A stretch of 49,045 nt of DNA from contig JABDLD010000048.1 in NCBI GenBank assembly GCA_013001885.1, positions 1 through 49,045 of the forward strand. Reading direction: 5' to 3'. A model generated the notes under the pieces. That model saw nothing but the letters and a program-made list of their open reading frames with translations, ran no database searches and was not told where the DNA came from. A program made the translations under genes and the position numbers. Positions 356 to 49,045 of the stretch are shown in pieces (position 1 is the stretch's first letter; each line of letters begins with the position of its first letter). This stretch comes from Lysobacterales bacterium. Its GTDB lineage: Bacteria; Pseudomonadota; Gammaproteobacteria; Xanthomonadales; SZUA-36.

Positions 356-2686
356 ATGTCATTCTCTCTCAACCTGGAAGACCGCGGCACCGAGTTCATT
401 TCGGTCGACCCCGCCAAAACTCCGCCTCTGCCCGCTGATGAACTCGAAAGTCTGGAGTTCCTGGACCTGAATTACAGGACGCTGTGCGCGGTGATGTTCA
501 ACCACGCGTCATCCGGCCATCCGGGCGGAAGTATTTCCAGCGGCCGTATTGTAGAGTCATTGATGTTCAATCGGATGGATTACGATATTTCCAATCCGAT
601 GGACCGCACCGCGGACATTATTTCCTATGCGGCGGGACACAAGGCGCTGGGGCTGTATGCGATATCGGCCTGCCGGAACGAGGTAGTGCGCCAGGCCGCC
701 GCGGAGTTGCTGCCGGAAGTGCGCCAGCAGCTCAGGCTCGAAGACCTGCTCGGTTTCCGCAAAAATCCGATCACGAAAACACCTCTGTTCCTGGAGTTCG
801 ATTCCAAACCGCTGGACGGACACCCGACGCCCCAGACGCCCTTTGTCTGGCTTGCCACCGGTCCCAGTGGGGTAGGTGTTGCCAGTTCCGTGGGCCTGGC
901 TCTGACGCTCAAGGATATGCACCGCAACCATGCACCGCGGGTGCACGTGATTGAAGGCGAGGGCGGCATGACGCCCGGACGCGTGGCCGAGGCGCTGGCC
1001 GCCGCGGCGACTTCCGGACTGGATAACTTCTATTTCCACGTTGACTGGAACCAGGCTGCGATCGATTCTGACCTCGTCACCCGCGAGGGCGGCAAAGCCG
1101 GCGAGTACGTGCAGTGGGACCCCTGCGAGTTTCTGCTGGTGCACGGGTTCAACGTTATTTACGTGCCTGATGGATTTGATTTTGCGCAAATCCGCACGGC
1201 GCAGAAACAGGCGATGGCAATTCACAACGGCCGGCCCACCGGGATCGTTTACCGCACCATCAAGGGTTGGCAGTACGGTATTGAAGGTTCCAAATCCCAC
1301 GGCGGCGGGCACAAGTTTTACAGTGAAGAGTACCTGGCGGCGCTGAAGCCATTCGAGCAGATACTGGGTCTCGAATTTCCGCGGTTCACCGGCGAAAAGA
1401 ACCCGGCCAGCATCGAGCAGGCGTTTTACGATTCCCTGCGGGTTATCCGGCGGGCTTTCGAATCCCGTCCGGCGTTGACCCGGCAGTTGTCAGACTGGAT
1501 CAAGGCCAGCAAACAGCGCCTTGCAGCCGAGCCCAGGGAGTTGCGGGCAAACGCTCCCGAACTGGCGAAGCTTTACGAACCGGACACGATATCCCCACTG
1601 CGGCGCCCGCAAAGCTGTACCTATGAGACCGGCTCCAACCAGACCCTGCGCGGCTCGCTCAGCCACTGTTTAAACCATGTCAACAAAGTGACGAACGGCG
1701 CCGTGCTGGCGGCGGCCGCTGATCTTTACGGTTCCACCAATATATCGAGCATCAGCGCCGGCTTTGGTTCCGGTTTCTGGCACCCGCAGAACAATCCCGA
1801 TTCCCGCCTGTTTTCAGCAGGCGGAATCGCAGAAGACGCGATGGGGGGAATCTGCTCCGGTATCGCGACCATGGGTTATCAGATCGGCGTGGGTTCATCC
1901 TACGGCGCGTTTATCGCCCCGCTCAACACGATTTGCGCGAAGACCCACGGCATCGGCCAGCAAACCCTGCGGCACAGGGTGCCCGGTGAGCCAAACAAAA
2001 CTTTTGTGGTGGTATGCGGGCATGCCGGAGTCAAAACCGGAGAAGACGGCCCGACACATGCCGAGCCCCAGGCGCTTCAGGTTCTGCAGGAAAATTTCCC
2101 TGGAGACGCAATGATAACGCTTACTCCGTGGGACCCGAACGAGCTGTGGCCGTTGACGGCGGAAGCGCTCCTGCAGCGGCCAGCGGTCATCGCGCCTTAC
2201 GTGACCCGGCCGTCCGAGGTCATCGTGGATCGCGCCGTACTTGGCCTGGCGCCCCCCGAAGCGGCGGTCAAAGGCGTTTATAAATTACTGGCGGCAAACG
2301 GAAAACCCGAAGCAACGGTCGTTTACCAGGGCAGTGATGTCGCCTATGCATTCGTTACCGGAGTGCTTCCGCGCCTGCGGGAAAAAGGCATGAACCTGGA
2401 TGTCTATTACATTGCAAGCGCGGAACTGTTTAACCGCCTGGACGAGGAAGAACGGAACGAGATTTATCCGTTCACAGCCGCCTCGTCCGCTATGATGTTT
2501 TCAGGTTTCACCGTTGCGACAACCTACCGCTGGATCATGTCCGAGCGCGGACGCCATAACACGTACTACCCCTGGAAGAGCGGCTGCTTCCTGGGCAGTG
2601 GTACCGGCGATGTCTGTCTGGAACAGGCTGATATGCACCCCGCCGCGCAATGGGACATCATTCAGGAATTTGTTGCAGGCAAGTAA
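356..2686 (+). CDS. Transketolase-like thiamine-diphosphate enzyme
   Basis: A 776-residue protein with full transketolase architecture: N-terminal ThDP-binding domain, pyrimidine-binding domain and C-terminal domain. Visible signatures are G-H-P-G at residues 54-57, D-G-H-P-T-P followed by A-T-G-P-S-G-V-G, a ThDP/Mg motif at 200-204 with D-x-N at 230-232 and Ile 236, and G-E-D-G-P-T-H at 562-568. Glu 493, in A-E-D-A-M-G, aligns with the catalytic glutamate of transketolases. The usual G-D-G metal motif reads G-E-G here (Glu 202), a conservative but unusual change. Length exceeds the typical 660-680 residues. ATG at 356 has AAGGAA seven bases upstream. The fused GcvT-SHMT gene starts 12 bases after the stop, so the two are probably one transcript. 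Known transketolases move two-carbon ketol units between sugars or take them from hydroxypyruvate; the substrate here is unknown. The partner gene suggests a role other than the ordinary pentose phosphate pathway. Confidence 0.85.
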   Translation: MSFSLNLEDRGTEFISVDPAKTPPLPADELESLEFLDLNYRTLCAVMFNHASSGHPGGSISSGRIVESLMFNRMDYDISNPMDRTADIISYAAGHKALGLYAISACRNEVVRQAAAELLPEVRQQLRLEDLLGFRKNPITKTPLFLEFDSKPLDGHPTPQTPFVWLATGPSGVGVASSVGLALTLKDMHRNHAPRVHVIEGEGGMTPGRVAEALAAAATSGLDNFYFHVDWNQAAIDSDLVTREGGKAGEYVQWDPCEFLLVHGFNVIYVPDGFDFAQIRTAQKQAMAIHNGRPTGIVYRTIKGWQYGIEGSKSHGGGHKFYSEEYLAALKPFEQILGLEFPRFTGEKNPASIEQAFYDSLRVIRRAFESRPALTRQLSDWIKASKQRLAAEPRELRANAPELAKLYEPDTISPLRRPQSCTYETGSNQTLRGSLSHCLNHVNKVTNGAVLAAAADLYGSTNISSISAGFGSGFWHPQNNPDSRLFSAGGIAEDAMGGICSGIATMGYQIGVGSSYGAFIAPLNTICAKTHGIGQQTLRHRVPGEPNKTFVVVCGHAGVKTGEDGPTHAEPQALQVLQENFPGDAMITLTPWDPNELWPLTAEALLQRPAVIAPYVTRPSEVIVDRAVLGLAPPEAAVKGVYKLLAANGKPEATVVYQGSDVAYAFVTGVLPRLREKGMNLDVYYIASAELFNRLDEEERNEIYPFTAASSAMMFSGFTVATTYRWIMSERGRHNTYYPWKSGCFLGSGTGDVCLEQADMHPAAQWDIIQEFVAGK

Positions 2687-2698
2687 TCGGGAATCAAT

Positions 2699-5347
2699 AT
2701 GATGGGCGAAGCACTGAGGACAGTTTTCTACCCGTACCACCTGGAGGCAGGTGCGAAAATCACCGAGTTCGGCGGTTGGGAGATGCCGCTTCAGTATCCC
2801 CCAGGCATTTTGCAGGAGCACCTGCTGACTCGAAAACAGGCGGGCCTGTTTGATGTGTCGCACATGGGGCGCTTCATCATCAGCGGAGAGCAGGCATTGC
2901 CGTTCCTGCAGCATGTTCTCACCAACAATGCCGCGAGTCTCGACGTGGGCCTCGGCCAATACACGATGATCCCCAACGAAGCGGGCGGCATTCTGGACGA
3001 TGCGTACCTGTACCGGTTCGTGCAGGATGAATACCTGTTGGTCGTGAATGCCAGCAACCGCCTGAAGGACTGGGCACACCTGGAAAGCGAACGCGAAAAG
3101 TTTCCGCAAACGCGGATGACGGACCGGACGCTCGAGATTGCCATGTTGAGTTTGCAGGGGCCGAACGCCAAGGCCATCCTCTCCGGCATTATTTCCGGTG
3201 ATCTGCCGGAACCCATGCGAAACGAGCTGAGTATTGTTGAAATCGAGGGCGCACGGGTGCTTTTGGCACGAACCGGATACACCGGCGAACCGATCTGTTT
3301 TGAACTGTTTATTGAGCGCGATGGCGCCGTCAGGGTCTGGGAGTTGTTAACCGGGAACGGAGCGATTCCCATCGGCCTCGGCGCACGGGACTCATTGCGC
3401 CTGGAAGCCGGTCTGCCGCTGTACGGACATGAACTGGGCCTGGACCCTGAAGGCAAGGAAATTCCGGCTTTCGCGTCCGACCTTTCCCGTTTTGCGGTCA
3501 GTTTCTCTGGCCTCAAGGGCGACTTTATCGGCCGGGACGCGCTGTTCGATCAATTCAAGGCGCTCAAGAACATTCTCGACCTGAATTTCACCGATATCGA
3601 GGCCTTGCCGCGGCGGGTTCTGCTGCTTGAAATCGGCGGTCGTGGCATTGCCCGCCCCGGTGACCGCGTGTTCCACAATGAAGAACTGGCCGGTTATGTC
3701 ACCAGCGGCACCATGGTGCCCTACTGGGGTGTCGAGGGTGAGGGCGTCGAGTCCCAGTTTGGCGACGACAGTGCCCGCCGGGCCATTGGCATGGCCCTGG
3801 TTTCCAGCGAGTTATGGGAAGGTGACGAGGTCGAGGTCGAAATCAGGGGCCGCCGGACCGCGGCGACGATCGTGCCTTATTTCCTGCGTGGTGAGGCCCC
3901 GCCGTTTGCGCGCTCGATCGTTCACACCAAACCGGACGGCGAGGGTGTCGTTCCCGCCGCACGGTCCTTCACGGACAAAGCGAAGGAACTGGTTGACCAG
4001 GCCGTGGCGAACACCCACTGGCGCCAACTCGACTGCATCAACCTGATTCCGTCTGAAATGTCGATTTCTCCGATGGTGAAGCTGCTGTCGGTGATGGATC
4101 CGGTGGGTCGCTACGCGGAACACAAACAGGTCAAAGCGCTCGACGAAGCAGAGGTGTTTTACTACCAGGGCACGGAGTTCATCTGGGAGGTAGAAGAGCT
4201 TCTGAAGCAGGAGATGATGGATTACCTCGGGTGTCCCGCAGTAGAGCCGCGACTGATTTCAGGGCAGATGGCCAACATGACGGTTTTCAGCGCCATGGTG
4301 GATTACCTCAACCGGGCCGACCGCAAGAGTGAACAACGGCGCATGCGGATGGTGATGAACAACCACATCATCAAAGGTGGGCATTTGAGCGCACAGCCGA
4401 TGGGCGCGCTGAAGGACTACGTGGCCAGGGATCCGCGCACTGAGAAAGCGGCTGCGGTCAATTTTCCGGTATTGAAGGACAACCCCTACCGGATGGATGT
4501 GGCGGCAACCGGCGAGTTGCTCGAGGAACACCGCCCGGAGCTGATCATCCTCGGCAAAAGCATGGTGCTGCATCCCGAGCCGGTGGCCGAAATTCGCGCG
4601 TTCATCAACGAACTCGGCCTGGATTGTTTCCTGATGTACGACATGGCGCACGTGCTGGGGCTGATCGGGCCGCATTTTCAGCATCCGTTCAAAGAGGGCG
4701 CAGACATTGTCACCGGCTCCACCCACAAAACGTTTTTCGGAACACAACGCGGGATCGTCGCGTCACGTTTTGTCGAGGAAGACCTGCGTTATCCGTTCTG
4801 GGAGGCGGTCGAGAGGCGCGCATTTCCCGGCGCGGTGAGTAATCATCACCTGGGCACGCTGCTGGGGTTGTTGATGGCAACCTATGAAATGAACACATTC
4901 AGGGACGGGTACCAGGAAAAAGTCATCTGCAACGCCAAGGCATTTGCCCGGGCGCTCGATGACTGCGGCCTGGAGGTTGCTGGAGATCCGGCTGTTTCTT
5001 TCACCGAGACCCACCAGGTGCTGCTGGATGTCGGTTACACCCGGGGCCCTGAAGTTGCGAGGCGGCTGGAAGAAAACAATATCATCGTCAACTACCAGGC
5101 CTCACCCGAGGAAGAGGGCTTTACTGCTTCAGGTTCGCTGCGCATGGGGGTCTCCGAGATGACCCGTTTTGGTATGGAGGAGCAGGATTTCGCTGAATTG
5201 GCGGAACTCATACATGACGTTGTCGTCGGCCGCGCCACCGTCAAGCCGAGGGTGGCGGAATTCAGAAAACGCTTCCTGCAGATGAAATACTGCTTTACCG
5301 AGGATGAGTTCGGGGAGCGCCTGCAGACCCTGCACGGCCTGGTCTAA
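2699..5347 (+). CDS. GcvT-SHMT fusion protein
   Basis: An 882-residue protein joining two folate enzymes. Residues 1 to about 400 are a GcvT/aminomethyltransferase-like domain, with G-L-F-D-V-S-H-M-G-R, G-G-I-L-D-D (the folate-contacting aspartate region) and R-T-G-Y-T-G-E. From about 422 to the end it is a serine hydroxymethyltransferase-like PLP domain: R-Y-A-E-H, Y-D-M-A-H-V-L-G-L-I, the PLP lysine K677 in G-S-T-H-K-T, and S-G-S-L-R-M-G near the C-terminus for substrate carboxylate binding. The key residues of both halves look intact. In the SHMT half the usual YYGG segment reads YYQG. GcvT moves a methyl-derived one-carbon unit to tetrahydrofolate; SHMT condenses that unit with glycine to make serine. 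A fusion could pass methylene-THF directly from one site to the other (inference). It lies 12 bases downstream of the transketolase-like gene and is convergent with the aminotransferase, with stops 5 bases apart. The SHMT half could also act as an aldolase on another amino acid. Confidence 0.88.
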   Translation: MMGEALRTVFYPYHLEAGAKITEFGGWEMPLQYPPGILQEHLLTRKQAGLFDVSHMGRFIISGEQALPFLQHVLTNNAASLDVGLGQYTMIPNEAGGILDDAYLYRFVQDEYLLVVNASNRLKDWAHLESEREKFPQTRMTDRTLEIAMLSLQGPNAKAILSGIISGDLPEPMRNELSIVEIEGARVLLARTGYTGEPICFELFIERDGAVRVWELLTGNGAIPIGLGARDSLRLEAGLPLYGHELGLDPEGKEIPAFASDLSRFAVSFSGLKGDFIGRDALFDQFKALKNILDLNFTDIEALPRRVLLLEIGGRGIARPGDRVFHNEELAGYVTSGTMVPYWGVEGEGVESQFGDDSARRAIGMALVSSELWEGDEVEVEIRGRRTAATIVPYFLRGEAPPFARSIVHTKPDGEGVVPAARSFTDKAKELVDQAVANTHWRQLDCINLIPSEMSISPMVKLLSVMDPVGRYAEHKQVKALDEAEVFYYQGTEFIWEVEELLKQEMMDYLGCPAVEPRLISGQMANMTVFSAMVDYLNRADRKSEQRRMRMVMNNHIIKGGHLSAQPMGALKDYVARDPRTEKAAAVNFPVLKDNPYRMDVAATGELLEEHRPELIILGKSMVLHPEPVAEIRAFINELGLDCFLMYDMAHVLGLIGPHFQHPFKEGADIVTGSTHKTFFGTQRGIVASRFVEEDLRYPFWEAVERRAFPGAVSNHHLGTLLGLLMATYEMNTFRDGYQEKVICNAKAFARALDDCGLEVAGDPAVSFTETHQVLLDVGYTRGPEVARRLEENNIIVNYQASPEEEGFTASGSLRMGVSEMTRFGMEEQDFAELAELIHDVVVGRATVKPRVAEFRKRFLQMKYCFTEDEFGERLQTLHGLV

Positions 5348-5352
5348 AGAAG

Positions 5353-6693
5353 TTAAAGCACCATCCGGACGCCCGAACGCATGAAGGTGTGGAAGCCTTC
5401 GGCATCCCCCGCGGCCGCTGCGATCCGCCTTACGGCCTCCTCCAGGTCGCTGGCCCCCGTTGCAACTGACAGCCGTAAGAAGTGCTGCCCCTCGCTGTCC
5501 AGCGCGCCGAACGAGCGCCGGTCCATCGTGGCCACGTGGTAACGATACAGAAGGAACAATTGGAACAGGGTCGCCGGGCTTGAATTACGCCGGGTTTCCC
5601 CGGGTAGCGCGTCGAAAGCCCGCTGAATTTCCAGCCGGTCAACGACCCCGGCGATATTGGGGAACGCGTAAAAAGCACCCTTGGGTTTCTGGCATTGAAT
5701 GCCGTCGATGCGGTTCAGGCCGCTGATGACCTGGTCGCGGCGCCGCTGAAACGCAGCCGTCATCTGCTGAATCGCCGGACCGCTTTCCGGGGATTCGAGC
5801 GCAACACGGGTCGCAATCTGGTTGTACGGCGGAATGCTGGCAAAGTAATTGATATTCAGATTGCGGTGAACCTTGGCTTCCTCGACCGTCGGATAGACGG
5901 CCCAGCCGACGCGGCCGCCGGTCCAGGAGTAGGTTTTGGATACGGCCGAGGCAATGATGGTGCGTTGCTCCATACCCGGAACCGACGCGATGGAGAAGTG
6001 GTCTTCACTGTCAAAAACGATCGCTTCATAGGCCTCGTCCGAGTACACGCGTACGTTGGGCGGGGTTTTCTCGAGAATCAGTTCGGCCAGCGCTTCGAGT
6101 TGCGCCTTGCTGGCGACGCCGCCGGTCGGGTTGGAGGGAAAGTTCAGGTAAATGAGCTTCGTGTGGTCGGAAATCAGCGGTTCCAGCTCTTCGGTCGTCA
6201 GCGAGAAACCGTGATCCTCCTGCAGATGAATGGGTATCGGTTTCGCCCCCACATAAGGTATGTAGGACTCGTACAGCGGATAGCCAGGCGTCGGGTAAAT
6301 GACTTCGTCGCCCTGTTCACAATAGGATTGCTGGGCGAATCCGATCGAAGGCCTCGCGCCCGGGAATACCACGACGCGCTCAGGATCTATTTCCGGCAGG
6401 CCCCGGTCCGCGGCCATTTTGCCCGCCAGCGCCGCCCGAAGTTCAGGCATGCCTTGCGGATCGCAATATGTCGTGTGCCCGGCCCGGACGGCATCGATCA
6501 CGGCTTCGGCAATATGGTTCGGCAGCGGAAAGTCCGGTTGTCCCAGGTTGCAGCGGATCACCCGCTCCTGGGCCGCCTGCTCGACTTCGAGAATTCGAGA
6601 ACCGAAACCAAATGCGGCCTCGGTACCCATCAACTGCACCCTGTTTGCAAATATGGGGGCATCTGCCGGTGCGGGCATACGAACTGTGTTCAT
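5353..6693 (-). CDS. Class I/II PLP aminotransferase
   Basis: A 446-residue fold-type I aminotransferase. Visible features are N-L-G-Q-P-D-F-P near the N-terminus, N-F-P-S-N-P-T-G-G, Y-S-D-E-A-Y-E, the PLP lysine K253 in S-K-T-Y-S-W-T-G-G-R-V-G, and F-L-R-L-S-V near the C-terminus for the carboxylate-binding arginine. It resembles aspartate/alanine-type aminotransferases and should exchange an amino group between an amino acid and a 2-oxo acid; substrates cannot be read from sequence. ATG at 6693 is chosen over TTG at 6702 because GGAGG lies about ten bases upstream of the ATG and nearly abuts the TTG. A stretch around residues 345-385 is longer than in standard AspC. It is convergent with the GcvT-SHMT gene and divergent from the peptidase gene at 6886. 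Its position next to a serine-making fusion makes serine or glycine a plausible substrate, as inference only. Confidence 0.85.
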   Translation of the reverse strand: MNTVRMPAPADAPIFANRVQLMGTEAAFGFGSRILEVEQAAQERVIRCNLGQPDFPLPNHIAEAVIDAVRAGHTTYCDPQGMPELRAALAGKMAADRGLPEIDPERVVVFPGARPSIGFAQQSYCEQGDEVIYPTPGYPLYESYIPYVGAKPIPIHLQEDHGFSLTTEELEPLISDHTKLIYLNFPSNPTGGVASKAQLEALAELILEKTPPNVRVYSDEAYEAIVFDSEDHFSIASVPGMEQRTIIASAVSKTYSWTGGRVGWAVYPTVEEAKVHRNLNINYFASIPPYNQIATRVALESPESGPAIQQMTAAFQRRRDQVISGLNRIDGIQCQKPKGAFYAFPNIAGVVDRLEIQRAFDALPGETRRNSSPATLFQLFLLYRYHVATMDRRSFGALDSEGQHFLRLSVATGASDLEEAVRRIAAAAGDAEGFHTFMRSGVRMVL

Positions 6694-6844
6694 GCGGGAC
6701 AAACCTCCGTTGGCTGAATCTGTTTTGATCCCATTACTGGAAATTTTACTGTGCGGAAAGGAATTGCCACATGATCTACATTAGGCAACGCGCTGAGCCG
6801 ATTAAGTCGAGCCAATTTCAGGATAACTGTCGGGGCGGTTGGCC

Positions 6845-22855: not shown

Positions 22856-25800
22856 TTATGTTCTGTTCAGTTTCTTCAGTATTTTTTCGGCGGAAACAAA
22901 ATCCTGTGAGTTATCTTTTTCGCCAAAACGGTTAAGGATGCCACTCAGGAGGCCGACCGCTTCAGCCGGTTGGGCCTGAAGCTCGAGCGCTTTGGCAAGG
23001 TCCACAGCGGCGCGCAGCTCCAGGGCCAGAGATTCCCTTTCCTGTGCCGTTTCCAATGCGGTCGAAAAAAGCTCGACCGCTGAATCAAGCTGTTCCTGCT
23101 CGCCCGAGGTTTGGAATTCGTTCAGACAGATACGCCCGCGCAGACGGTAATATTCCGATTCGAAAAAGCGCTCTCCGGTCTCCTGCAGGGCGCTCCAGCC
23201 ACTCTCCAGTTCTTCGACGGCGGTCTCATGGTTTTGCAGCGCAATATAGTCTTCCGCCAGGTTGAAGGAAAGATAGGTCATGCCCATTCCGGCCCCGGCG
23301 CCGCGATAGATATCCAGCCCTGATTTCATTTTCTCCACCGGCTCGATGTCACGCGGCATGGTTTCGTTTTTCTGATCGCGGTTTCCTGCCCAGGCCGTCA
23401 TGAAACCGGCCAGCGGAATCCAGAACCGATAACCTTTTTCCAGCGCAATACGGGCCGCATCCGACGCATGGAACAGAGTCTGTTTTGAGTCGCCTCGCAT
23501 CTGCTGGAGCCATGCACTGAAAAATGACGCAAAGGCCATTGCGTAGGGGTGCTTGAGGTCCTTGGCCATACTGCTGGCTTCTTTCACCAGCCTCGCGGCG
23601 GTCTGCGGAAATCCAAGGTGCCACTGCACCAGGGAAAGCACTACCCGCACATGAACCCGGGTGTCATCCCCGCTGGCAGATTGTGATGCATAGTCAATAC
23701 CGGGTTTCTCGCTCTCCAAAGCCTTCTCGAGAGCCGCTTTCGCAGCCTTGAAATCAGCCCGGTAATAGAGCGTAAATCCCCGGCTGTAATGTGCCTGAAG
23801 AAACTGTGCCGGGTCTTTCGTCGTTTCTGCGATGCGCATTAGGCGCTGGCTCTGCTCGTACGCTTCTTCGAGTTGGGCGGTGATGATGTAATACATCCAT
23901 AAGCCAACGGCCACCTGGAACAACTGAGGTGCGTCCCCAATCTGTTCGCAAAGGTCCTGCGCCCGCGTGAAGACCTTGCGCACCCGGGGGTCTGAATATC
24001 CGTGTGTCGACAGCAACGCGGTTCCAAGGATGCTCTGCAGCGGCACCTCCAGCGCGGCCCGTGGCTGCGATTCGGGCAGGCTTTTCAGCAGTTCAATGCC
24101 CTTCCTGGATTGCTCAATCGCTTCCTGGTTGGCAAAACGGGAGAGCGATTGCCGGCTGGCCTGGATCCAGAAGGGGATCGCTTTCTCCAGCTCGCCGGCT
24201 TCCGAGTAATGATAAGCCAGCAGCGCAGGCTGCCGCTTCGCCACGTCTGTGATCTCCTGCTCGAGAATGACGGCGGTGCGGCCATGCAGTTCCTTGCGCT
24301 TGGACTTCAGCAAGGAGTTGTAAGCAGTTTCGAGAATCAAAATATGTTTGAACGAGTAGGTCAGGTTTTTCAGCACACCCCGCTGATAGAGCAATTCGGC
24401 ACTGACAATCTCATTCATGCCGTCCTTCAGCGCCTGCTCGTTTTCGGTGCCGCTGACCGCACGCAGCAACGTGTAGTAAAACTCACGTCCGAGCACGGAA
24501 CACAGCTGCAACAGCGCCTTGGATTCACCGAGATTATCGATACGGGCCGCCAGTGAATCCTGCAGGGTCGCCGGAATTTCGAGCCATCTCATTTCTTCCG
24601 GCCGGCCCTCGGCCAGGGATTTGCGCCACGCGTCGGACTCGAGCACAGCCAGCGTGAGCTCCTGGATAAACAGGGGATTGCCGTCTGTTTCCTCGATGAT
24701 TCGATTGACTATGGCATCCGGCAGCTCTGCCCCACCGGTGGTGCTTACGATCAGGTCTTTTGCTGATTTGCGCGCCAGGGGAAGCAGCTCCTGGACCAGC
24801 ACGAAGGAGCGTTTTGTCCAGTCGGCTTCAAAATGCGGCCGTGCAGAAAACAGGACGAATAAACCTGCCGCAGGCCCCCGGTTCACCAGCATTTGGATCA
24901 TTTCCAGGGTTGACGGATCAGCCCAGTGCAGGTCTTCAATGAGCAACAGGACGGGCCTGGAAGACGCTGCAAGGCTGAGCATGTCCAGCAGCAGTTCCAG
25001 TGTCTGCATGCGCACAATCTGTGCTGAACCGGTGGGTGGTGAATACCCCGATTCCGGGCTGATCGACAGCAGGTTGGCGAGCAAGGGCACCGCCTCGTCC
25101 TCGTCAACGGATTGCAGACCGACAAAAGAAGTCAGCCGCTCCAGCCTGGAGTCGGAATTTTCCTGGTCCGAAAAGCCCAGGATAGAGTCTTGCAGAACGC
25201 GGATGACCGGAGCCAGCGGGTTGTTCCGCTCATACGGAGAGCACATGCAGGAAATCAGGGTTAAATCGCCGTTTTCGCGGACGTGCTGGATAAATGAGCT
25301 TAGCAGGCTGGTCTTGCCGATGCCCGGCTCGCCCTGCAGCAACACGAATTGGCCGCCGCCATCCTCTACATTTTCCCAGCGATCACGCATCAGGCGCATT
25401 TCATCTTCGCGGCCCTTCAACAATGTTAACTCTGCGCTGGAACCGTCCAGCATCCGGGCCGTCTCCACGCGGAAGACTTCAATATCGCCGCCAAATTGCG
25501 TTTGCTGATGGGATCCGGCCGGCTCGAGTCTGAAATGGTTGGCGACGATTTTTTTGGTGTGGGGCCCGATGATCAGGGATCCCGGCGGCGCCAGGCCGTG
25601 CAGCCACGCCGCCATGCGAGGCGCCTGGCCGATGATGGAGATTTCCTGGTTATCGGTTTTCGATTCATCAACGATCACCAGGCTGGTGGAGATACCCACC
25701 CGGGTGATGAACCCGCGGGATTCTTCACCGGAGCGCGACTCCGACATGTTGCGCGTTTCGTTAATCAGGGCGAGTCCGGCCGCGACCGCGCGCCGCGCGT

Positions 25801-26344
25801 CATCTTCGCGGGCATTCGGATAGCCGAAAACCAGTGTCAGTTCCTCGGCTCCACTGGGAAGCTTGTGACCTTCGTAACGATCGGAGAGGTCCTGGCAAAC
25901 CGACTCCAGGACGGTGATTGAGTCACGCAGAAATTCAGGGTCCGCCTCCGGATCATCGCCGTAGGACAATTCAAATACCGCGCTCAGCATCGTGATCTGG
26001 CGCCGTTCCGAATCGCCCATTTCCAACGACATGGCGGGCGCGGGAAGCGGTTCATGTTCCTCTTCCTGTTCCTCTTCCAGTTCCTCGCGAGGGCCGGTTC
26101 GAACGATGGTATGGTTGGGGGTGATATCAAAAATCCAGGCCAGCACCACTGCAACCGGGTAGCCCAACACCAACACGATCAGCAAGCCCTGCATGATCCA
26201 GGGCGGCGCCTCGAACGCATCCAGGATCACTTCGGCGACCTGCACCATCAACCAGGCGCCAATGCCGTAGGGAATCGCGACCTGCAGCACGCGCCGCCGC
26301 CAGATTTCCTTCAGGAAGATTTTGAACTTTACCGATTTGCTCAT
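22856..26344 (-). CDS. Class III cyclase-like domain / AAA ATPase / TPR regulator
   Basis: A 1162-residue multidomain protein. The N-terminus has two hydrophobic segments (about 19-40 and 50-72), followed by an acidic linker. A class III nucleotide cyclase-like domain lies at about 110-290, with the closing F-G-Y-P-N-A-R-E-D-D-A-R-R-A-V-A-A-G-L typical of the cyclase-ATPase family. The metal-binding aspartates appear lost: V-F-E-L where F-C-D-L is expected, and S-G-A-E where G-D-G is expected. An AAA-type ATPase domain follows, with Walker A G-E-P-G-I-G-K-T at 338-345 and L-L-L-I-E-D-L-H-W-A-D as Walker B. The last 450 residues look like TPR helices. Proteins of this design work as signal-dependent scaffolds or regulators. 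Its ATG overlaps the stop of the DUF1329 gene (ATGA), so production is coupled. The cyclase half is probably not catalytic, which is my reading of the motifs. Confidence 0.82.
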   Translation of the reverse strand: MSKSVKFKIFLKEIWRRRVLQVAIPYGIGAWLMVQVAEVILDAFEAPPWIMQGLLIVLVLGYPVAVVLAWIFDITPNHTIVRTGPREELEEEQEEEHEPLPAPAMSLEMGDSERRQITMLSAVFELSYGDDPEADPEFLRDSITVLESVCQDLSDRYEGHKLPSGAEELTLVFGYPNAREDDARRAVAAGLALINETRNMSESRSGEESRGFITRVGISTSLVIVDESKTDNQEISIIGQAPRMAAWLHGLAPPGSLIIGPHTKKIVANHFRLEPAGSHQQTQFGGDIEVFRVETARMLDGSSAELTLLKGREDEMRLMRDRWENVEDGGGQFVLLQGEPGIGKTSLLSSFIQHVRENGDLTLISCMCSPYERNNPLAPVIRVLQDSILGFSDQENSDSRLERLTSFVGLQSVDEDEAVPLLANLLSISPESGYSPPTGSAQIVRMQTLELLLDMLSLAASSRPVLLLIEDLHWADPSTLEMIQMLVNRGPAAGLFVLFSARPHFEADWTKRSFVLVQELLPLARKSAKDLIVSTTGGAELPDAIVNRIIEETDGNPLFIQELTLAVLESDAWRKSLAEGRPEEMRWLEIPATLQDSLAARIDNLGESKALLQLCSVLGREFYYTLLRAVSGTENEQALKDGMNEIVSAELLYQRGVLKNLTYSFKHILILETAYNSLLKSKRKELHGRTAVILEQEITDVAKRQPALLAYHYSEAGELEKAIPFWIQASRQSLSRFANQEAIEQSRKGIELLKSLPESQPRAALEVPLQSILGTALLSTHGYSDPRVRKVFTRAQDLCEQIGDAPQLFQVAVGLWMYYIITAQLEEAYEQSQRLMRIAETTKDPAQFLQAHYSRGFTLYYRADFKAAKAALEKALESEKPGIDYASQSASGDDTRVHVRVVLSLVQWHLGFPQTAARLVKEASSMAKDLKHPYAMAFASFFSAWLQQMRGDSKQTLFHASDAARIALEKGYRFWIPLAGFMTAWAGNRDQKNETMPRDIEPVEKMKSGLDIYRGAGAGMGMTYLSFNLAEDYIALQNHETAVEELESGWSALQETGERFFESEYYRLRGRICLNEFQTSGEQEQLDSAVELFSTALETAQERESLALELRAAVDLAKALELQAQPAEAVGLLSGILNRFGEKDNSQDFVSAEKILKKLNRT

Positions 26345-27847: not shown

Positions 27848-28587
27848 ATGAGTACTCACGTCATTTTTGTTGCGCCGTTTTTTATGGAAACGACACTCCG
27901 TTTCGTGGCCGGCGCCGCCAGCCTGCCCGGGGTAAGGCTTAGCCTGATCAGCCAGGACCCGGCAGAAAAGCTTCCCGCGGGTCTGCATTCCCGCCTGGTA
28001 CTCCATTTCACGCTATCTGCCGGCGCCGCTGCAGGTGCTGGAAAATCCGTGGATTCAATGGTGCGTGTTTTTACCGCGTGATGTCAGCGGCGAGGAATTC
28101 ACGGCAATCGGGGAAGCAGGCTTCGACGCGGTCAAGGCGCTCGGACTCCAGACCGGCCACGCACATGGAGTGGTTCGCCGGCCCCAAAGGCCTGAAGTTT
28201 TCCGAAATCGGCTGCCGTCCGCCGGGCGTGGGGCAGTGGGACGTGTATAACACCGCCAACGACTTCGATCTGTACCTCGAATGGGCGTCAGCGCTGGCGC
28301 ACGGCCGGACGCAGCGAAAACCTTCTCGCCGTTTTGCTGCCGGAATGATCGCGCTGCGGCCCTCGTGCGACGGCCGGATCACGGGCTATTCCGGGCTCAA
28401 GTCCATTCAGCAACGGTTTGGTGACTGTATCGTGGCCTCTCACTTTCCACCCTCCGGTTCCGCCACGCAACCGGTAGAAGGCGGATACATGGCCAACGCC
28501 TGGATGCGTGTTCGCCATCCGAACTACGATACACTCCGGGAAATAATGAACACTAGTGGAGAAACGGTGAAAGTTCATGCTGCCTGA
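27848..28587 (+). pseudogene. Decayed ATP-grasp enzyme gene
   Basis: Three pieces of one ATP-grasp protein lie in three reading frames. Piece one (ATG 27848 to about 28010) encodes M-S-T-H-V-I-F-V-A-P-F-F-M-E-T-T-L-R-F, the start of such enzymes. Piece two (about 28011-28160, another frame) has L-E-N-P-W-I-Q-W-C-V-F-L-P-R-D. Piece three (about 28160-28587) has H-M-E-W-F, followed by E-I-G-C-R-P-P-G, the usual ATP-grasp metal and substrate region. Between pieces one and two a block of roughly 150 residues, estimated from typical family length, is missing, including the ATP-binding lysine region. A further shift of one or two bases near 28160 separates pieces two and three. The last codons overlap the start of the PGM1-like gene at 28577 by 11 bases, so the two were once a coupled pair. 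A sequencing error could explain the small shift but not the large deletion. Confidence 0.8.
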
Positions 28588-30127
28588 ACTCAACGACGAC
28601 TTTACGCAACTTCAGCAGAAATTGCTGCCTATCTGGTCAGCGGTTCGGGAGGACGATACCTTCGGGCACACTTCGGTAATCGTGCCATCACTGAGTGTTG
28701 ACCAGGACGAATTGAGCAAGGTCCAGGGCGCCTCGTTCTATGAAGAACGGCTTTTGTTTGCGTTGATCCGCCTGCGTAATCCCAATGCCCGTCTGATCTA
28801 CGTCACCAGCCAGCCGGTGCATCCCGACGTGGTGGATTACTATCTCCAGCTGCTGGTTGGCGTTCCTGCGGCTCATGCCCGGCGCAGGCTGCAGATGCTG
28901 TCCGTGTACGACGACAGTACCCGCGCATTGACCGAAAAGGTCCTGGAGCGGCCGCGGGTGCTGGAACGTTTACGCGGCTGGATCGGTGAGCACGGTCCGG
29001 CTTACCTGACGTGCTACAACACCACCATGCTGGAGCGTCGCCTGGCGCTTGAACTGGAGATTCCGCTCAACGGAGTCGACCCGGTCCTGCTGGACCTGGG
29101 AACCAAATCCGGCAGCCGGCAAACCTTTGCCGCCGCAGAAGTGCCGCACCCCGCAGGTTACGAAAACCTTCATTCGGAGCAGGAAGTGGTCGATGCGCTC
29201 AGCCGTCTCGCCGAGGCCCGCCCCGGCATCCGCCGTGCGGTAGTGAAGATCAATGAAGGGTTTTCCGGCGAGGGCAACGGTGTCTTCGAATTTCCGCCGG
29301 AGAAAACCGACAAGGAGTCCATACGAAAAAATCTTCATCAGCTGGAATGGCCTTCTGCAACCGAAAATATTGGCTCTTTTCTGCGCAAATACGAGCAAAT
29401 GGGCGGCATCGTGGAAGAAATGATCGAGACCGAGGAAGTCCGTTCTCCCAGCGTCCAGATGAGAATTCAGCCCAACGGCGAGGCGATCCTGGTCTCCAGC
29501 CACGAACAGGTGCTGGGCGGTAAAACCGGCCAGGTTTACCTGGGTTGCCAGTTTCCCGCGCGCGAAGAGTACCGGACAATGATCCAGGAGCAGGCCAAGC
29601 GTATTGGAGATGTGCTGAGCCAAAAGGGCGTCATCGGCCGGTTTGGCATTGATTTTCTGCTGACCCGTTCGGCGGGCGGCGCCTGGGAATCGCATGCGCT
29701 GGAAATTAATTTGCGCATGGGCGGAACCACGCCCCCGTTTCACGCGCTCGAATTCCTGACCTCGGGAGAACTGAATCCGGACACGGGAATCTACCGCGCA
29801 CCCACCGGACAGGAAAAATTTTACAGCGCGACCGACAACCTGAAGTCCCCCGCCTACCGGGGCTTGCTGCCTGAAGACCTGTTCGACATCATCATTCGGA
29901 ACAAGATCCATTACCAGCCGGACAGCGGCACCGGCGTATTGTTCTACATGATTGGGGCGCTTTCACAATATGGAAAACTCGGCATGACCTGTATTGGAAA
30001 CACACCGGAACAGGCCAGCGAACTGTTCCGGCGAACCGTCGCCCTGCTGGATCGGGAGACCGAGACCGGCAGCAGGGATCATGGCGAGCTCGAGCCTCTG
30101 TTCGACAATCCGCTGAGCATGGAATAA
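28577..30127 (+). CDS. PGM1-like ATP-grasp peptide ligase
   Basis: A 516-residue ATP-grasp protein of the peptide ligase PGM1-related group. Visible are the K-I-N-E-G-F-S-G-E-G-N-G ATP-binding stretch, E-E-M-I-E-T-E-E-V-R-S-P-S, the metal-binding end E-I-N-L-R-M-G-G-T-T, and a C-terminal domain with I-G-A-L-S-Q-Y-G-K-L-G-M-T-C-I-G-N-T-P that is typical of PGM1. Known members join an amino acid or peptide to an amine-bearing partner through an acyl phosphate, as in pheganomycin assembly. No signal peptide; cytoplasmic. Its ATG lies inside the end of the decayed ATP-grasp gene upstream, so an original two-ligase operon is likely. What it joins is unknown, and loss of the partner may have altered its role. 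Confidence 0.82.
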   Translation: MLPELNDDFTQLQQKLLPIWSAVREDDTFGHTSVIVPSLSVDQDELSKVQGASFYEERLLFALIRLRNPNARLIYVTSQPVHPDVVDYYLQLLVGVPAAHARRRLQMLSVYDDSTRALTEKVLERPRVLERLRGWIGEHGPAYLTCYNTTMLERRLALELEIPLNGVDPVLLDLGTKSGSRQTFAAAEVPHPAGYENLHSEQEVVDALSRLAEARPGIRRAVVKINEGFSGEGNGVFEFPPEKTDKESIRKNLHQLEWPSATENIGSFLRKYEQMGGIVEEMIETEEVRSPSVQMRIQPNGEAILVSSHEQVLGGKTGQVYLGCQFPAREEYRTMIQEQAKRIGDVLSQKGVIGRFGIDFLLTRSAGGAWESHALEINLRMGGTTPPFHALEFLTSGELNPDTGIYRAPTGQEKFYSATDNLKSPAYRGLLPEDLFDIIIRNKIHYQPDSGTGVLFYMIGALSQYGKLGMTCIGNTPEQASELFRRTVALLDRETETGSRDHGELEPLFDNPLSME

Positions 30128-46179: not shown

Positions 46180-47385
46180 TTAGAGCAGTAACTCGATCCA
46201 ATGCTTCACCGGCAGTTCGGTCCCGCTTTGTAAGTGCATCAGGCAGCCGATGTTGGCCGTGGCGATCAGCGCCGGTTTTTCCCGTTCCAGGCAAGCCAGT
46301 TTTCGGTTCAATAACTGCCGCGAGATGTCTTTTTGCAAAATTGAATAACTGCCAGCCGAGCCGCAGCACAAATGGGAATCGGACACGATTGCCAGTTCGA
46401 ACCCGAGGTGGCGGAGCAGGGCCTCTACTTTACCGCCGCTTTTCAAACCGTGCTGCAGCGTGCAGGGCGAATGGAAAGCAACCAGGCCACAGCTATCCCG
46501 CTGCGAAGCCAGGCACTCGGGGTCCTGGTTCGCCAGGAATGACGAGATGTCACCGGTAACCGACGCTATTCGCTCGGCCTTCCCGGCATACTCCGGATCG
46601 TGATGCATGATGCGGTCATAATCCATCACGGTGGGTGCGCACCCGCTTGCGGTAATCAACAGCGCCTCCACCCCGGCTTCGATTTGCGGCCACCACCGAT
46701 CAATATTGGCGCGGATCGTGTTTTCGGTTTGATCCTCGCGCGACAGGTGATGGCTCAGTGCGCCGCAGCATCCCGGGGCCGGCAAAGCCTGTATGCCGAT
46801 TCGGTCCAGCACGCGGGCGGCGGCCAGGTTGATCCGCGGCGCCGCCACCGATTGAGCACAGCCTTCGAGCAGCAAAACCTTGCGTGCATGGTCCGTCGAC
46901 GGCCAGGCCGAGCGTTGCCGCTCTACAGCGGGGATTCCTTTTTTTAGTGAAGCCGGAAGCAGCGGACGGGCGAAATTGGCTAATCCAAGCACGCTTCGGA
47001 AGCGGTTTGGCCGGGGCAAAATCTGCAGCAGCGCCGTACGCTGAACGCGCTCGGTCCACGGGCGTTCGATGCGTTTCTCAATTACCGCCCGGCCAATCTC
47101 GAGCAGGCGGTTGTACTGTACGCCGGAGGGGCAGGTTGTTTCGCAGGCCCGGCAGGTCAGGCAGCGGTCGAGATGCACCTGGGTTTCGCGGCTGGCCGTA
47201 TTTTTTTCCAGCAGTTCCTTGATCAGGTAGATTCGCCCGCGCGGGCCGTCCCGTTCGTCGCCGAGCAACTCGTAGGTCGGGCAGGTCGCGTTACAGAAGC
47301 CGCAGTGCACGCAGGACCTGAGTATGGCCTCGGCCTCGCGTCCGTCGGCTGTCTGTTTGAATGATTCTCGGAGGAAAGTCTGCAT
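46180..47385 (-). CDS. glcF: Glycolate oxidase iron-sulfur subunit
   Basis: A 401-residue protein. Two 4Fe-4S ferredoxin-type clusters are visible: C25, C28, C31, C35 and C75, C78, C81, C85. Two C-C-G motifs (P-G-C-C-G-A and H-L-C-C-G-S) follow, as in GlcF and related heterodisulfide-type subunits. It passes electrons from GlcD/GlcE to the respiratory chain during oxidation of glycolate to glyoxylate. The ATG shares one base with the glcE stop (TAATG), so translation is coupled. Length matches E. coli GlcF (407). Convergent with the outer-membrane protein gene. Confidence 0.94.
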   Translation of the reverse strand: MQTFLRESFKQTADGREAEAILRSCVHCGFCNATCPTYELLGDERDGPRGRIYLIKELLEKNTASRETQVHLDRCLTCRACETTCPSGVQYNRLLEIGRAVIEKRIERPWTERVQRTALLQILPRPNRFRSVLGLANFARPLLPASLKKGIPAVERQRSAWPSTDHARKVLLLEGCAQSVAAPRINLAAARVLDRIGIQALPAPGCCGALSHHLSREDQTENTIRANIDRWWPQIEAGVEALLITASGCAPTVMDYDRIMHHDPEYAGKAERIASVTGDISSFLANQDPECLASQRDSCGLVAFHSPCTLQHGLKSGGKVEALLRHLGFELAIVSDSHLCCGSAGSYSILQKDISRQLLNRKLACLEREKPALIATANIGCLMHLQSGTELPVKHWIELLL

Positions 47386-48437
47386 TACCAGTCGGGACTC
47401 ATTCGGTGCGGGTTGAAAATGGCGTTCGGGTCAAGTGCCTGCTTGATTTTCTTCTGCATGTTATTGAGCGCATCCGGCAGCGGGTGAAAACGCCGCACTT
47501 CACCGGATCCTCGAAACAGGGTGGCGTGGCCGCCCGCCAGTGCAGCCCGTTCACGAATTTCGTCCTCGGCCATGGAATTACGGTACCAGCGTTGCGCGCC
47601 ACCCCAGTCCACCAGGCATTCGCCGGCCAGGTCCAGCGGCGCAGTGGCCGGAGGCAGCGACAGGCGCCAGAGTGTTTCCGACCCGGTAAAGAATGCCGTC
47701 TGGTGTTCCCTCAATTCCTGCCACGAGCCGTCCGCCTCAAGATCACGGTCGGCGCCCAGGCGCCGCGCCGCCCTTTCCGTTTCCGATTCTGTGCCGGACA
47801 GTCGAACCCGCAGTTTTTCTTGCCACCAGAAAGCGCCTGACAAAGGCAACGGCTGAGCTGACCATTCGTTGACGCGGCGAATGGCTTCGGCCTGACTGCA
47901 GTCGAACTGCAGGGTCCGTTCGCGGGCTGGAACCGGTAACACCTTGAACGAGGTCTCCAGCAAAACACCCAGGGTGCCCAGCGAGCCGGCCATCAGGCGG
48001 GACATGTCGTAACCCGCCACGTTCTTCATCACCTGGCCGCCGTAATGTACGACTTCTCCCAGGCCATTGAGCAGTTTCACGCCCAGCAGGTAGTCGCGCA
48101 GGCTGCCGGCCCACGGCCGCCGCGGACCCGAAAACCCGCAGGCAACTGTGCCGCCGATGGTTGCCTGGTCACCGAAGGCGGGCGGCTCAAAAGGCAGGTG
48201 CTGCCCGTTTTCCCGCAGTATCGACCGGATTTCCGACAGCAGGCTGCCGGCCCGGCAGGTGATGACCAATTCGCCCGGATCGTACTCCACCACACCGCTG
48301 TGCGCGGAAACGTCCAGTGGATCCCCTTGTGCGGGATAGCCGTAAAAAGCTTTGCTGTCTCCGCCTTTTATCTGCAGCGGCCGGTTTCCCTGTATTGCTT
48401 TCCGGACGCTTTCTGCAATGAAATTTTGCCGGTCCAC
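47385..48437 (-). CDS. glcE: Glycolate oxidase FAD-binding subunit
   Basis: A 350-residue FAD-binding protein of the FAD_binding_4 fold: P-P-A-F-G-D-Q-A-T-I-G-G-T-V-A-C-G-F-S-G-P, and L-G-E-V-V-H-Y-G-G-Q-V-M-K-N-V-A-G-Y-D. It is a subunit of glycolate oxidase with GlcD and GlcF. GTG 48437 is chosen because GAGG lies eight bases before it; a TTG at 48443 overlaps the glcD stop but has almost no spacing to that site. Length fits GlcE (350). It abuts glcD upstream and overlaps glcF downstream. Confidence 0.93.
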   Translation of the reverse strand: MDRQNFIAESVRKAIQGNRPLQIKGGDSKAFYGYPAQGDPLDVSAHSGVVEYDPGELVITCRAGSLLSEIRSILRENGQHLPFEPPAFGDQATIGGTVACGFSGPRRPWAGSLRDYLLGVKLLNGLGEVVHYGGQVMKNVAGYDMSRLMAGSLGTLGVLLETSFKVLPVPARERTLQFDCSQAEAIRRVNEWSAQPLPLSGAFWWQEKLRVRLSGTESETERAARRLGADRDLEADGSWQELREHQTAFFTGSETLWRLSLPPATAPLDLAGECLVDWGGAQRWYRNSMAEDEIRERAALAGGHATLFRGSGEVRRFHPLPDALNNMQKKIKQALDPNAIFNPHRMSPDW

Positions 48438-48439
48438 GT

Positions 48440-49045
48440 TCAAAACCTCGGCAGGTCGGGAAAGGGCAGGTTGCCGCCGTGCACATGCATGGCCCCGAGT
48501 TCGGCGCAGCGGTGCAGCGTGGGGACCGCTTTGCCGGGGTTGAGCAGGCCGGCCGGGTCGAACGCAGCTTTCAATGCGTGGAACTGTTCCAGTTCGGCCG
48601 GGGAAAACTGTTCACACATCGAGTCGATTTTCTCCATTCCCACTCCGTGTTCACCGGTCACCGTTCCGCCGGCCTTGATGCACATGCTGAGGATTTCGGC
48701 GCCAAGGCTTTCGGCCTGCTGCAGTTCACCTTCACGATTGGCGTCGTAAAGAATCAGCGGATGCAGGTTGCCGTCGCCGGCATGAAACACGTTGGCGACC
48801 GGCAGGCCGTAACGCTGCGACGCAGCATCAATAGCCGCCAGAACGTTCGGCAACTCCCGGCGCGGTATGGTGCCGTCCATGCAGTAGTAGTCCGGGCGGA
48901 TACGCCCAACCGCGGGAAAGGCGTTTTTTCGTCCCGCCCATAAACGCAGTCGTTCAGTCTCTGAACCCGACACGTCCACGGACGTCGCTTCGTGCTCACC
49001 CAAAATGGTTTTGACGGCGGTCATTTGCTCGGCTACTTCCGCCTC
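48440..49045 (-). CDS. glcD: Glycolate oxidase FAD-linked subunit, C-terminal part
   Basis: The last 201 codons of a gene whose start lies beyond the right edge. The frame is open to base 49045. Conserved features are V-F-H-A-G-D-G-N-L-H-P, G-G-T-V-T-G-E-H-G-V-G, and F-D-P-A-G-L-L-N-P-G-K, all of the GlcD/D-lactate dehydrogenase type C-terminal domain. It is the catalytic flavin subunit that oxidises glycolate. The stop lies three bases from the proposed glcE start. The order glcD-glcE-glcF is the usual operon. Confidence 0.94.
   Translation of the reverse strand, partial: EAEVAEQMTAVKTILGEHEATSVDVSGSETERLRLWAGRKNAFPAVGRIRPDYYCMDGTIPRRELPNVLAAIDAASQRYGLPVANVFHAGDGNLHPLILYDANREGELQQAESLGAEILSMCIKAGGTVTGEHGVGMEKIDSMCEQFSPAELEQFHALKAAFDPAGLLNPGKAVPTLHRCAELGAMHVHGGNLPFPDLPRF

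What the first reader, a model, noticed from the sequence alone, without database searches (positions are those of the whole stretch)
356..6693. Transketolase-like enzyme, GcvT-SHMT fusion and aminotransferase as a possible one-carbon to ketose route
A transketolase-like gene is followed 12 bases later by a fused GcvT-SHMT gene, and an aminotransferase faces them with 5 bases between stops. Seen: the three genes and their intact catalytic residues. Known: GcvT feeds methylene-THF, SHMT makes serine from glycine, aminotransferases can give hydroxypyruvate from serine, and transketolase can use hydroxypyruvate as a two-carbon donor with loss of CO2. Inferred: the group salvages a methyl carbon and glycine into a ketose, or builds a specific compound. 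The glycolate oxidase genes at 46180-49045 could supply glyoxylate for glycine, although they are 40 kb away. I know of no described pathway with this set.
Basis: partly seen in the sequence, partly recalled or inferred. Interest (0 to 1): 0.8.

Follow-up and report, generated by a model that had tools for sequence, protein, structure and literature searches.

The report
Aminotransferase–transketolase module with GcvT-SHMT fusion
A divergent extra transketolase travels with a partner aminotransferase across many bacterial phyla, and in this lineage also with a one-carbon fusion enzyme, which suggests an undescribed way to turn glycine or serine carbon into sugar phosphates, though no reaction has been tested.

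Summary
In detail: a transketolase-like gene (TK), a GcvT-SHMT fusion 12 bases on, and a convergent class I aminotransferase (AT) with 5 bases between stops. The set is specialised: the genome also has TktA, GcvT, GcvH and a full-scoring SHMT. In 39 genomes of the family, TK occurs in 14 and AT in 14, both in 13; the two mismatches lie at contig ends. The fusion is in 9, never outside the TK/AT set. Beyond the family, TK relatives of about 50% identity occur in many phyla; an AT lies within 1 kb of TK in 21 of 42 well-flanked loci, against 1 AT hit in 582 kb further away. One TK clade carries two AT lineages, so the partner was probably swapped while the partnership stayed. AT-TK is the core; the fusion is a lineage add-on. 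Best reading: SHMT makes serine, AT makes hydroxypyruvate, TK uses it as two-carbon donor to make a ketose, losing CO2. Linkage is shown; every substrate is inferred. The TK is not a TIGR00232 transketolase (107 bits, cut-off 682) but folds like one and keeps its catalytic histidines. The glycolate oxidase genes are real but 40 kb away.

The parts
356..2686 (+). Divergent transketolase-like enzyme, 776 aa
   Evidence: Transketolase_N and Transket_pyr over Pfam cut-offs; 107 bits against a cut-off of 682 for TIGR00232; model with pLDDT 88.6 matches solved transketolases; catalytic residues
2699..5347 (+). GcvT-SHMT fusion, 882 aa
   Evidence: GCV_T, GCV_T_C and SHMT in one open frame; the same architecture in 9 of 39 family genomes, own included, two of them cut by contig ends
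2714..3877 (+). GcvT (aminomethyltransferase, folate-binding) part of the fusion
   Evidence: TIGR00528 254.4 bits (cut-off 235.85) and PRK00389 306.3 (cut-off 300), residues 6-393
3992..5278 (+). SHMT-like part of the fusion; best PDB sequence matches are SHMTs 4uqv and 4bhd (recalled to be from a methanogenic archaeon)
   Evidence: PRK00011 residues 432-860, 235.7 bits against a cut-off of 335; best PDB matches 4uqv and 4bhd, then 7k34
5353..6702 (-). Class I/II aminotransferase, convergent with the fusion; start TTG 6702 or ATG 6693
   Evidence: PF00155 182.9 bits; PLP lysine in 36 of 36 aligned ATs, six further active-site positions kept apart from gaps and one N-to-K row; found in 13 of the 14 family genomes with TK

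Best explanation
The genes form an amino-acid-to-ketose module. Steps: (1) the fusion's GcvT part loads methylene-tetrahydrofolate from a C1 donor (the glycine-cleavage H protein or a methylated amine) and its SHMT part adds that carbon to glycine, giving serine; (2) the AT transaminates serine to hydroxypyruvate; (3) the TK takes hydroxypyruvate as donor, releases CO2 and passes the two-carbon unit to an aldose, most likely glyceraldehyde 3-phosphate, giving xylulose 5-phosphate, without ATP or NADH. AT-TK is the widespread core; the fusion is a lineage-specific serine-making front end. Shown: gene set, domain architecture, conservation, co-occurrence, two AT lineages beside one TK clade, TK fold and catalytic residues. 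Inferred: every substrate, the direction and the C1 source.
For: TK x AT in 39 family genomes: 13 both, 1 TK only, 1 AT only, 24 neither (Fisher p 2e-8, which ignores kinship). Fusion in 9, all within those 15 genomes (p 2e-5, same caveat). AT within 1 kb of TK in 21 of 42 loci outside the family with at least 1.5 kb of flank on both sides, against 1 AT hit in 582 kb more than 3 kb away. The 13 family TKs in the tree form one clade (SH-aLRT 93), but their ATs fall in two groups 55-59% alike, each 65-68% alike to some ATs of other phyla: recurrent pairing. The genome has a separate canonical TktA, GcvT and GcvH and a full-scoring SHMT, 571.6 bits, so this set is an extra. A keto-acid-making AT next to a TK points to hydroxypyruvate, the classical keto-acid donor of TK (established knowledge); serine AT plus TK runs in vitro (PMC8719814, passages). 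One distant locus, L056, has Gcl-like and GlcD/E-type and GlcF-like genes upstream of TK; L086 has GcvT, TK and AT side by side.
Against: No substrate evidence for the AT; its nearest models are aspartate aminotransferases and none of the 25 models shown reaches its cut-off. 21 of 42 well-flanked loci outside the family have no AT near TK. In two complete chromosomes (L063, L077) no transketolase over the TIGR00232 cut-off was found and the listed other matches have DXS- or AceE-like frame lengths (each has one weaker match that the capped list did not show), so the family may also serve as an ordinary TK. GDG to GEG and the lost E160 equivalent could mean altered chemistry. The fusion was not found in genus g5, which has AT-TK. 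Only one locus shows the glycolate context. AT and fusion converge in the window, so they are not one transcript.
Confidence: 0.48

Rival explanations
1. The TK family is simply a second, divergent pentose-phosphate transketolase, and the AT makes or uses an amino acid fed by its products (for example erythrose 4-phosphate to aromatic amino acids). The fusion is an unrelated C1 gene trapped in the same operon.
For: R432 and R618, which I take by motif for the phosphate-contact arginines, and H556 are invariant; two complete chromosomes show no transketolase over the TIGR00232 cut-off; loci L061 and L116 lie beside carbohydrate genes (zwf-like by eye; class II fructose-bisphosphate aldolase).
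Against: A canonical TktA is present in this genome and in 15 of 30 tested genomes with TK-family loci; I saw no shikimate gene beside AT-TK when reading neighbours by eye (not searched systematically); the fusion occurs in no family genome without TK or AT.
Confidence: 0.22
2. The set builds one specific product (an unusual beta-hydroxy amino acid, aminoketose or osmolyte): the SHMT-like part acts as an aldolase or transaldolase, TK extends the chain by two carbons and AT adds or removes the amino group.
For: After two SHMTs the best PDB match of the SHMT part is 7k34, deposited as threonine aldolase and recalled to be ObiH, and fluorothreonine transaldolase scores 140 bits; patchy distribution inside the family (TK in 14 of 39); the SHMT part has no relative at E<=1e-45 in the other 397 phylum genomes searched.
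Against: The SHMT part keeps the RYAE glutamate, the GGH histidine and the PLP lysine seen in the aligned SHMT 4uqv, and is fused to a GcvT part that passes GcvT cut-offs, which points to folate chemistry; no NRPS/PKS genes recognised by eye in the neighbourhoods read; AT-TK spans many phyla. 140 bits is far under the transaldolase cut-off of 650.
Confidence: 0.17
3. The module is the assimilation end of quaternary-amine demethylation: methyl groups from betaines enter tetrahydrofolate through an MttB-type system or the GcvT part and leave through serine, AT and TK.
For: In L024 (G127) an MttB-like gene, an MtgC-like corrinoid protein, a methyl-THF methyltransferase and a corrinoid activator stand divergent to AT-TK (all but the methyltransferase model are under their cut-offs). 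In L030 a LysR-type gene (by eye) and a relative of that methyltransferase lie next to AT-TK. A paper on marine glycine-betaine users reports raised serine-cycle proteins (PMC12478193, passages read).
Against: MttB-like genes at 43% identity or more occur in 9 of 15 TK/AT genomes but also in 6 of 24 others (p 0.03), and the window's own genome has none at E<=1e-40.
Confidence: 0.08

Closest known systems
Bacterial transketolase TktA/TktB (TIGR00232)
   Same: Fold (VIA Z up to 36.5 over 636 residues), catalytic His set, D469 and H461 equivalents, and invariant arginines near the R358 and R520 positions
   Different: About 20-24% identity in the structural alignments to transketolases, 107 bits against a cut-off of 682, GEG instead of GDG, no E160 equivalent, about 100 residues longer
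In vitro serine-transaminase plus transketolase cascades (PMC8719814; PMC6140825; passages read)
   Same: Same proposed reaction pair: serine to hydroxypyruvate by an AT, consumed by TK
   Different: Man-made mixtures of enzymes; here a genetically linked natural pair is proposed
Serine cycle and photorespiratory C2 cycle
   Same: GcvT/SHMT serine formation and serine to hydroxypyruvate by an AT (established knowledge)
   Different: There hydroxypyruvate is reduced to glycerate and phosphorylated (established knowledge); here TK would take it. The AT here is class I/II, not the class V serine-glyoxylate type (class recalled)
SHMTs 4uqv and 4bhd and the threonine aldolase/transaldolase 7k34
   Same: Best PDB sequence matches of the SHMT part
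   Different: Fused to GcvT; inserted residues after RYAE and before GGH
GcvT of the glycine cleavage system
   Same: Passes TIGR00528 and PRK00389 cut-offs
   Different: Scores 306 against 477 bits for the genome's own GcvT on PRK00389; fused to SHMT

Membership tests
Bacterial transketolase (TIGR00232) | score over the curated cut-off of 682 bits | tested here: not met
   107.4 bits
Bacterial transketolase (TIGR00232) | transketolase fold | tested here: met
   TMt 0.80 to 8r3p; Z 36.5 to 8qmf; model pLDDT 88.6
Bacterial transketolase (TIGR00232) | catalytic histidines, E411 and D469 equivalents | tested here: met
   kept in 82 of 82 rows (roles recalled)
Bacterial transketolase (TIGR00232) | GDG Mg-ThDP motif and E160 | tested here: not met
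   GEG in 82 of 82; Pro 77, Thr 3, Ala 2 at E160
Bacterial transketolase (TIGR00232) | phosphate-contact residues R358, S385, H461, R520 | tested here: inconclusive
   H461 kept in 82 of 82; S385 is Ala in 61 and Ser in 21; the automatic alignment put R358 on L431 and R520 on R626, while by motif R432 and R618 fit and are invariant
Bacterial transketolase (TIGR00232) | transfers a C2 unit between ketose and aldose | not testable with these tools
   needs enzyme assay
GcvT (TIGR00528) | score over the cut-off of 235.85 bits | tested here: met
   254.4 bits
SHMT (PF00464) | score over the gathering cut-off of 27 bits | tested here: met
   118.1 bits
SHMT (PRK00011) | score over the cut-off of 335 bits | tested here: not met
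   235.7 bits
SHMT (PRK00011) | PLP lysine, RYAE glutamate and GGH histidine | tested here: met
   aligned to 4uqv; roles recalled
Fluorothreonine transaldolase (TIGR04506) | score over the cut-off of 650 bits | tested here: not met
   140.4 bits
Class I/II aminotransferase (PF00155) | score over cut-off and PLP lysine | tested here: met
   182.9 bits; Lys in 36 of 36 aligned ATs
Serine transaminase | activity on serine | not testable with these tools
   none of the 25 models shown for the AT reached its cut-off (62 matched, 37 not shown)
Serine cycle | glycerate kinase to use hydroxypyruvate via glycerate | tested here: inconclusive
   PF13660-type kinase absent in the own genome (it rings in 4 of 14 controls); other kinase types and hydroxypyruvate reductase not searched

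The most novel reading that the evidence does not exclude
A natural, ATP- and NADH-free serine-to-pentose route (serine AT plus a hydroxypyruvate-dedicated transketolase) exists as a gene pair in nine or more bacterial phyla (by record titles), and one gammaproteobacterial family has fused GcvT to SHMT in front of it to run glycine plus C1 straight into sugar phosphates.
Probability: 0.4. Interest if true: 0.82.

Novelty: new variant of a known kind. Interest (0 to 1): 0.62.

Why it matters
Hydroxypyruvate is the classical laboratory donor of transketolase, and serine-transaminase/transketolase cascades have been built for synthesis (PMC8719814, PMC6140825; passages read). A natural gene pair with this logic would be a new branch of glycine/serine and C1 assimilation, would explain an unnamed transketolase family found mostly in MAGs of uncultured lineages, and would supply enzymes already matched by evolution. 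The prediction is cheap to test with three purified proteins.

Tried and rejected
Chance neighbours: rejected. 'The TK is the housekeeping TktA': rejected; TktA is a separate gene. 'The fusion is an assembly artefact': rejected; 9 of 39 genomes carry it. Glycolate oxidase as part of the unit: not supported in the window (40 kb apart; no hit at E<=1e-15 to the window's three gene products in the 12 relatives' stretches). Corrinoid methyltransferase as an obligatory partner: not supported. Paper searches: 3 papers; 15; 2; 1,673, 20 listed; on MttB; 0; 26, 15 listed; 5; 18, 15 listed; 71, 15 listed. No listed title or abstract start described this pathway as natural, or the fusion; the library lacks most subscription journals, so novelty is not proven. 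An alignment of the SHMT part to the genome's own SHMT failed because the script picked a wrong ORF (ABC-ATPase-like); that result was dropped and the PDB alignment used. A systematic Pfam tally of neighbours was prepared but not run; the ten neighbours scanned were picked by eye, and two of three scanned with no match at E<=1e-40 were PLP-type proteins that I had guessed at. The VIA-align list also holds pyruvate dehydrogenase E1 (1l8a, Z 30.7): the shared ThDP fold alone does not fix the reaction.

Limits of the counts: the genome-contig scan found 129 relatives but kept 80, so counts by locus concern those 80; some of them are the same contigs as the G-handle stretches (for example L038 = L019). 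AT neighbours were detected with the window's AT as query (tblastn E<=1e-8), so unrelated AT classes are not counted. Loci labelled 'none' in the tree include loci cut just beside TK. Neighbours outside the hmmscans were read by eye.
Full report
WHAT IS THERE. The window is a complete 49,045-base contig (C53) of a 3.30 Mb genome, 97.9% complete. The nearest relatives, at 76-83% TK identity, come from MAGs titled Chromatiales, Lysobacterales, Xanthomonadales or Gammaproteobacteria. Below, 'the family' means the taxonomic family coded f1; I suspect Woeseiaceae, a recalled name that I did not test. Three genes lie at the contig start: a transketolase-like gene at 356-2686, a GcvT-SHMT fusion at 2699-5347 and a convergent class I/II aminotransferase at 5353-6702 (gaps of 12 and 5 bases).

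THE GENES ARE EXTRAS. The same genome holds a canonical TktA (668 aa, beside a GAPDH-like ORF by eye), a normal GcvT (477 bits) with GcvH, a second SHMT scoring 571.6 bits to PF00464 and further GcvT-domain genes, one of them with an FAD-oxidoreductase-like part by eye. The window's TK scores 107 bits against a TIGR00232 cut-off of 682. The fused GcvT part passes the GcvT cut-offs narrowly (254 against 236; 306 against 300), and the SHMT part is under the PRK00011 cut-off (236 against 335).

CONSERVATION IN THE FAMILY. In 200 genomes of the order, TK was found in 13 (own included), all in family f1. In 398 phylum genomes only the own genome matched at E<=1e-20 (at most two candidates per genome were scored in the rows shown). 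A whole-family run of 39 genomes gave TK in 14, AT in 14 and both in 13. The AT-only genome (G619) has its AT on a contig that ends inside the fusion. The TK-only genome (G186) has the TK 3' end about 155 bases from a contig end. The fusion is in 9 of 39, two of them partial, all within these 15 genomes. Gene order varies: TK, fusion, convergent AT in the window and five other genomes; AT, TK, fusion on one strand in G042; AT, TK in five genomes of genus g5, without a fusion anywhere in them. In G619 an extra gene lies between fusion and AT; in G618 AT and TK are on different contigs.

CONSERVATION ACROSS PHYLA. A scan of GTDB species genomes with the 12-sequence TK alignment found 129 relatives, of which 80 were kept. 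Eleven are 76% or more identical and count here as the family; 69 others are about 48-54% identical, in records titled Oligoflexia, Bdellovibrionales, Latescibacterota, Zixiibacteriota, Gemmatimonadetes, Deltaproteobacteria, Acidobacteria, Planctomycetota, Actinomycetota, Bacteroidetes, Schekmanbacteria and more (nearly all MAGs, so titles may err). An AT lies within 1 kb of TK in 30 of 80 loci, in 24 of 50 with at least 1.5 kb of flank on both sides, and in 21 of 42 such loci outside the family. Only 1 AT hit was found in 582 kb lying more than 3 kb from TK. So AT-TK is the conserved unit. Neither fusion part was found beside TK outside the family in these 69 loci, except a separate GcvT in L086, and the SHMT part has no relative at E<=1e-45 in the other 397 phylum genomes searched.

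PARTNER SWAP. The 13 family TKs in the tree form one clade (SH-aLRT 93). Their ATs fall into two clades (each 99-100% support): the window type sits in a supported group with ATs of Actinomycetota and Gemmatimonadota records (65-67% identity); the g5/G042 type lies apart, its place among the other ATs unresolved, with up to 68% identity to ATs of other phyla; the two types are only 55-59% alike. A third, distant AT clade of seven stands beside TK in records titled Bacteroidetes, Deltaproteobacteria, Syntrophaceae, Thermodesulfobacteriota, Proteobacteria and Acidimicrobiia. Repeated pairing of TK with different ATs argues that transamination and TK chemistry are coupled; ancient paralogy of the ATs is not excluded.

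ENZYME ANATOMY. The AlphaFold model (pLDDT 88.6) matches transketolases over nearly the whole length. The equivalents of H26, H66, H100, N185, H261, E411, H461, D469 and H473 are kept in 82 of 82 family members. For the phosphate arginines R358 and R520 the automatic alignment fell on L431 and R626 (Arg in 81 of 82); by motif I prefer R432 and R618, which are invariant. Differences: GEG for GDG, Pro (77), Thr (3) or Ala (2) for E160, and Ala (61) or Ser (21) for S385. At the S385 position, AT-linked TKs are Ala in 33 of 37 and the others in 28 of 45; relatedness is not corrected for, so this is only a hint. The SHMT part keeps RYAE, the GGH histidine and STHKT against 4uqv and carries inserts.

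MECHANISM. A class I AT makes or consumes a 2-oxo acid; the 2-oxo acid that transketolase is known to use is hydroxypyruvate, from serine (established knowledge). SHMT makes serine. The simplest chain is therefore glycine plus C1 to serine, to hydroxypyruvate, to ketose plus CO2. Support from other contexts is thin but in line: L056 has a glyoxylate-carboligase-like gene (732.7 against a cut-off of 791), a LarA-like gene, two GlcD/GlcE-type genes and a GlcF-like Fe-S protein (best model TfrB) upstream of TK, all under their cut-offs; L086 has GcvT (over its cut-off), TK and AT; L050 has threonine dehydrogenase and glycine C-acetyltransferase near AT-TK (picked by eye). Serine transaminase plus transketolase is an established in vitro cascade (PMC8719814 and PMC6140825, passages read).

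AGAINST. No substrate has been tested. 21 of 42 well-flanked outside loci lack a neighbouring AT. In 30 genomes checked, 15 have a TktA over the cut-off. In two complete chromosomes (L063, L077) none was found over the cut-off and the other listed matches look like DXS and AceE by frame length, so the family is perhaps also an ordinary TK in places (capped list). An MttB-type demethylation operon stands beside AT-TK in one genome, but MttB-like genes at 43% identity or more occur in 9 of 15 module genomes and 6 of 24 others, and not in the window's genome. The glycolate oxidase genes at 46180-49045 are on the same contig only.

VERDICT.

Noticed in passing
L024:8828-14708: MttB-like methyltransferase, MtgC-like corrinoid protein, methyl-THF methyltransferase and corrinoid activator divergent to AT-TK in one family member.
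   Followed up: partly
L056:2180-9822: Glyoxylate-carboligase-like, LarA-like, GlcD/E-type and GlcF-like genes directly upstream of a TK of this family.
   Followed up: partly
L050:137-2538; L049:7318-8652; L102:1833-2822; L099:4918-6471: Threonine/glycine-related genes (Tdh, Kbl, threonine synthase, threonine dehydratase-like, homoserine dehydrogenase) near AT-TK or TK in several phyla; picked by eye, not tested for enrichment.
   Followed up: no
L063:8877-9737; L064:3941-4801; L088:7332-8195; L095:8797-9609: A protein of about 270-290 aa (cluster F4, five loci) lies upstream of TK on the other strand; the L063 copy has no NCBIfam match at E<=1e-40.
   Followed up: no
window 28577-30127: Protein whose only NCBIfam match at E<=1e-15 is BesA (L-propargylglycine-glutamate ligase), far under its cut-off (158 against 750).
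   Followed up: no
window 22856-26344: 1162-aa protein matching the TOMM kinase/cyclase fusion model under its cut-off (516 against 706).
   Followed up: no
L150:1865-7687: In the same genome, a GcvT-like gene in a run with two CrtO/CrtI-like oxidoreductases and a GntE/HemL-like aminotransferase: a possible separate pathway.
   Followed up: no
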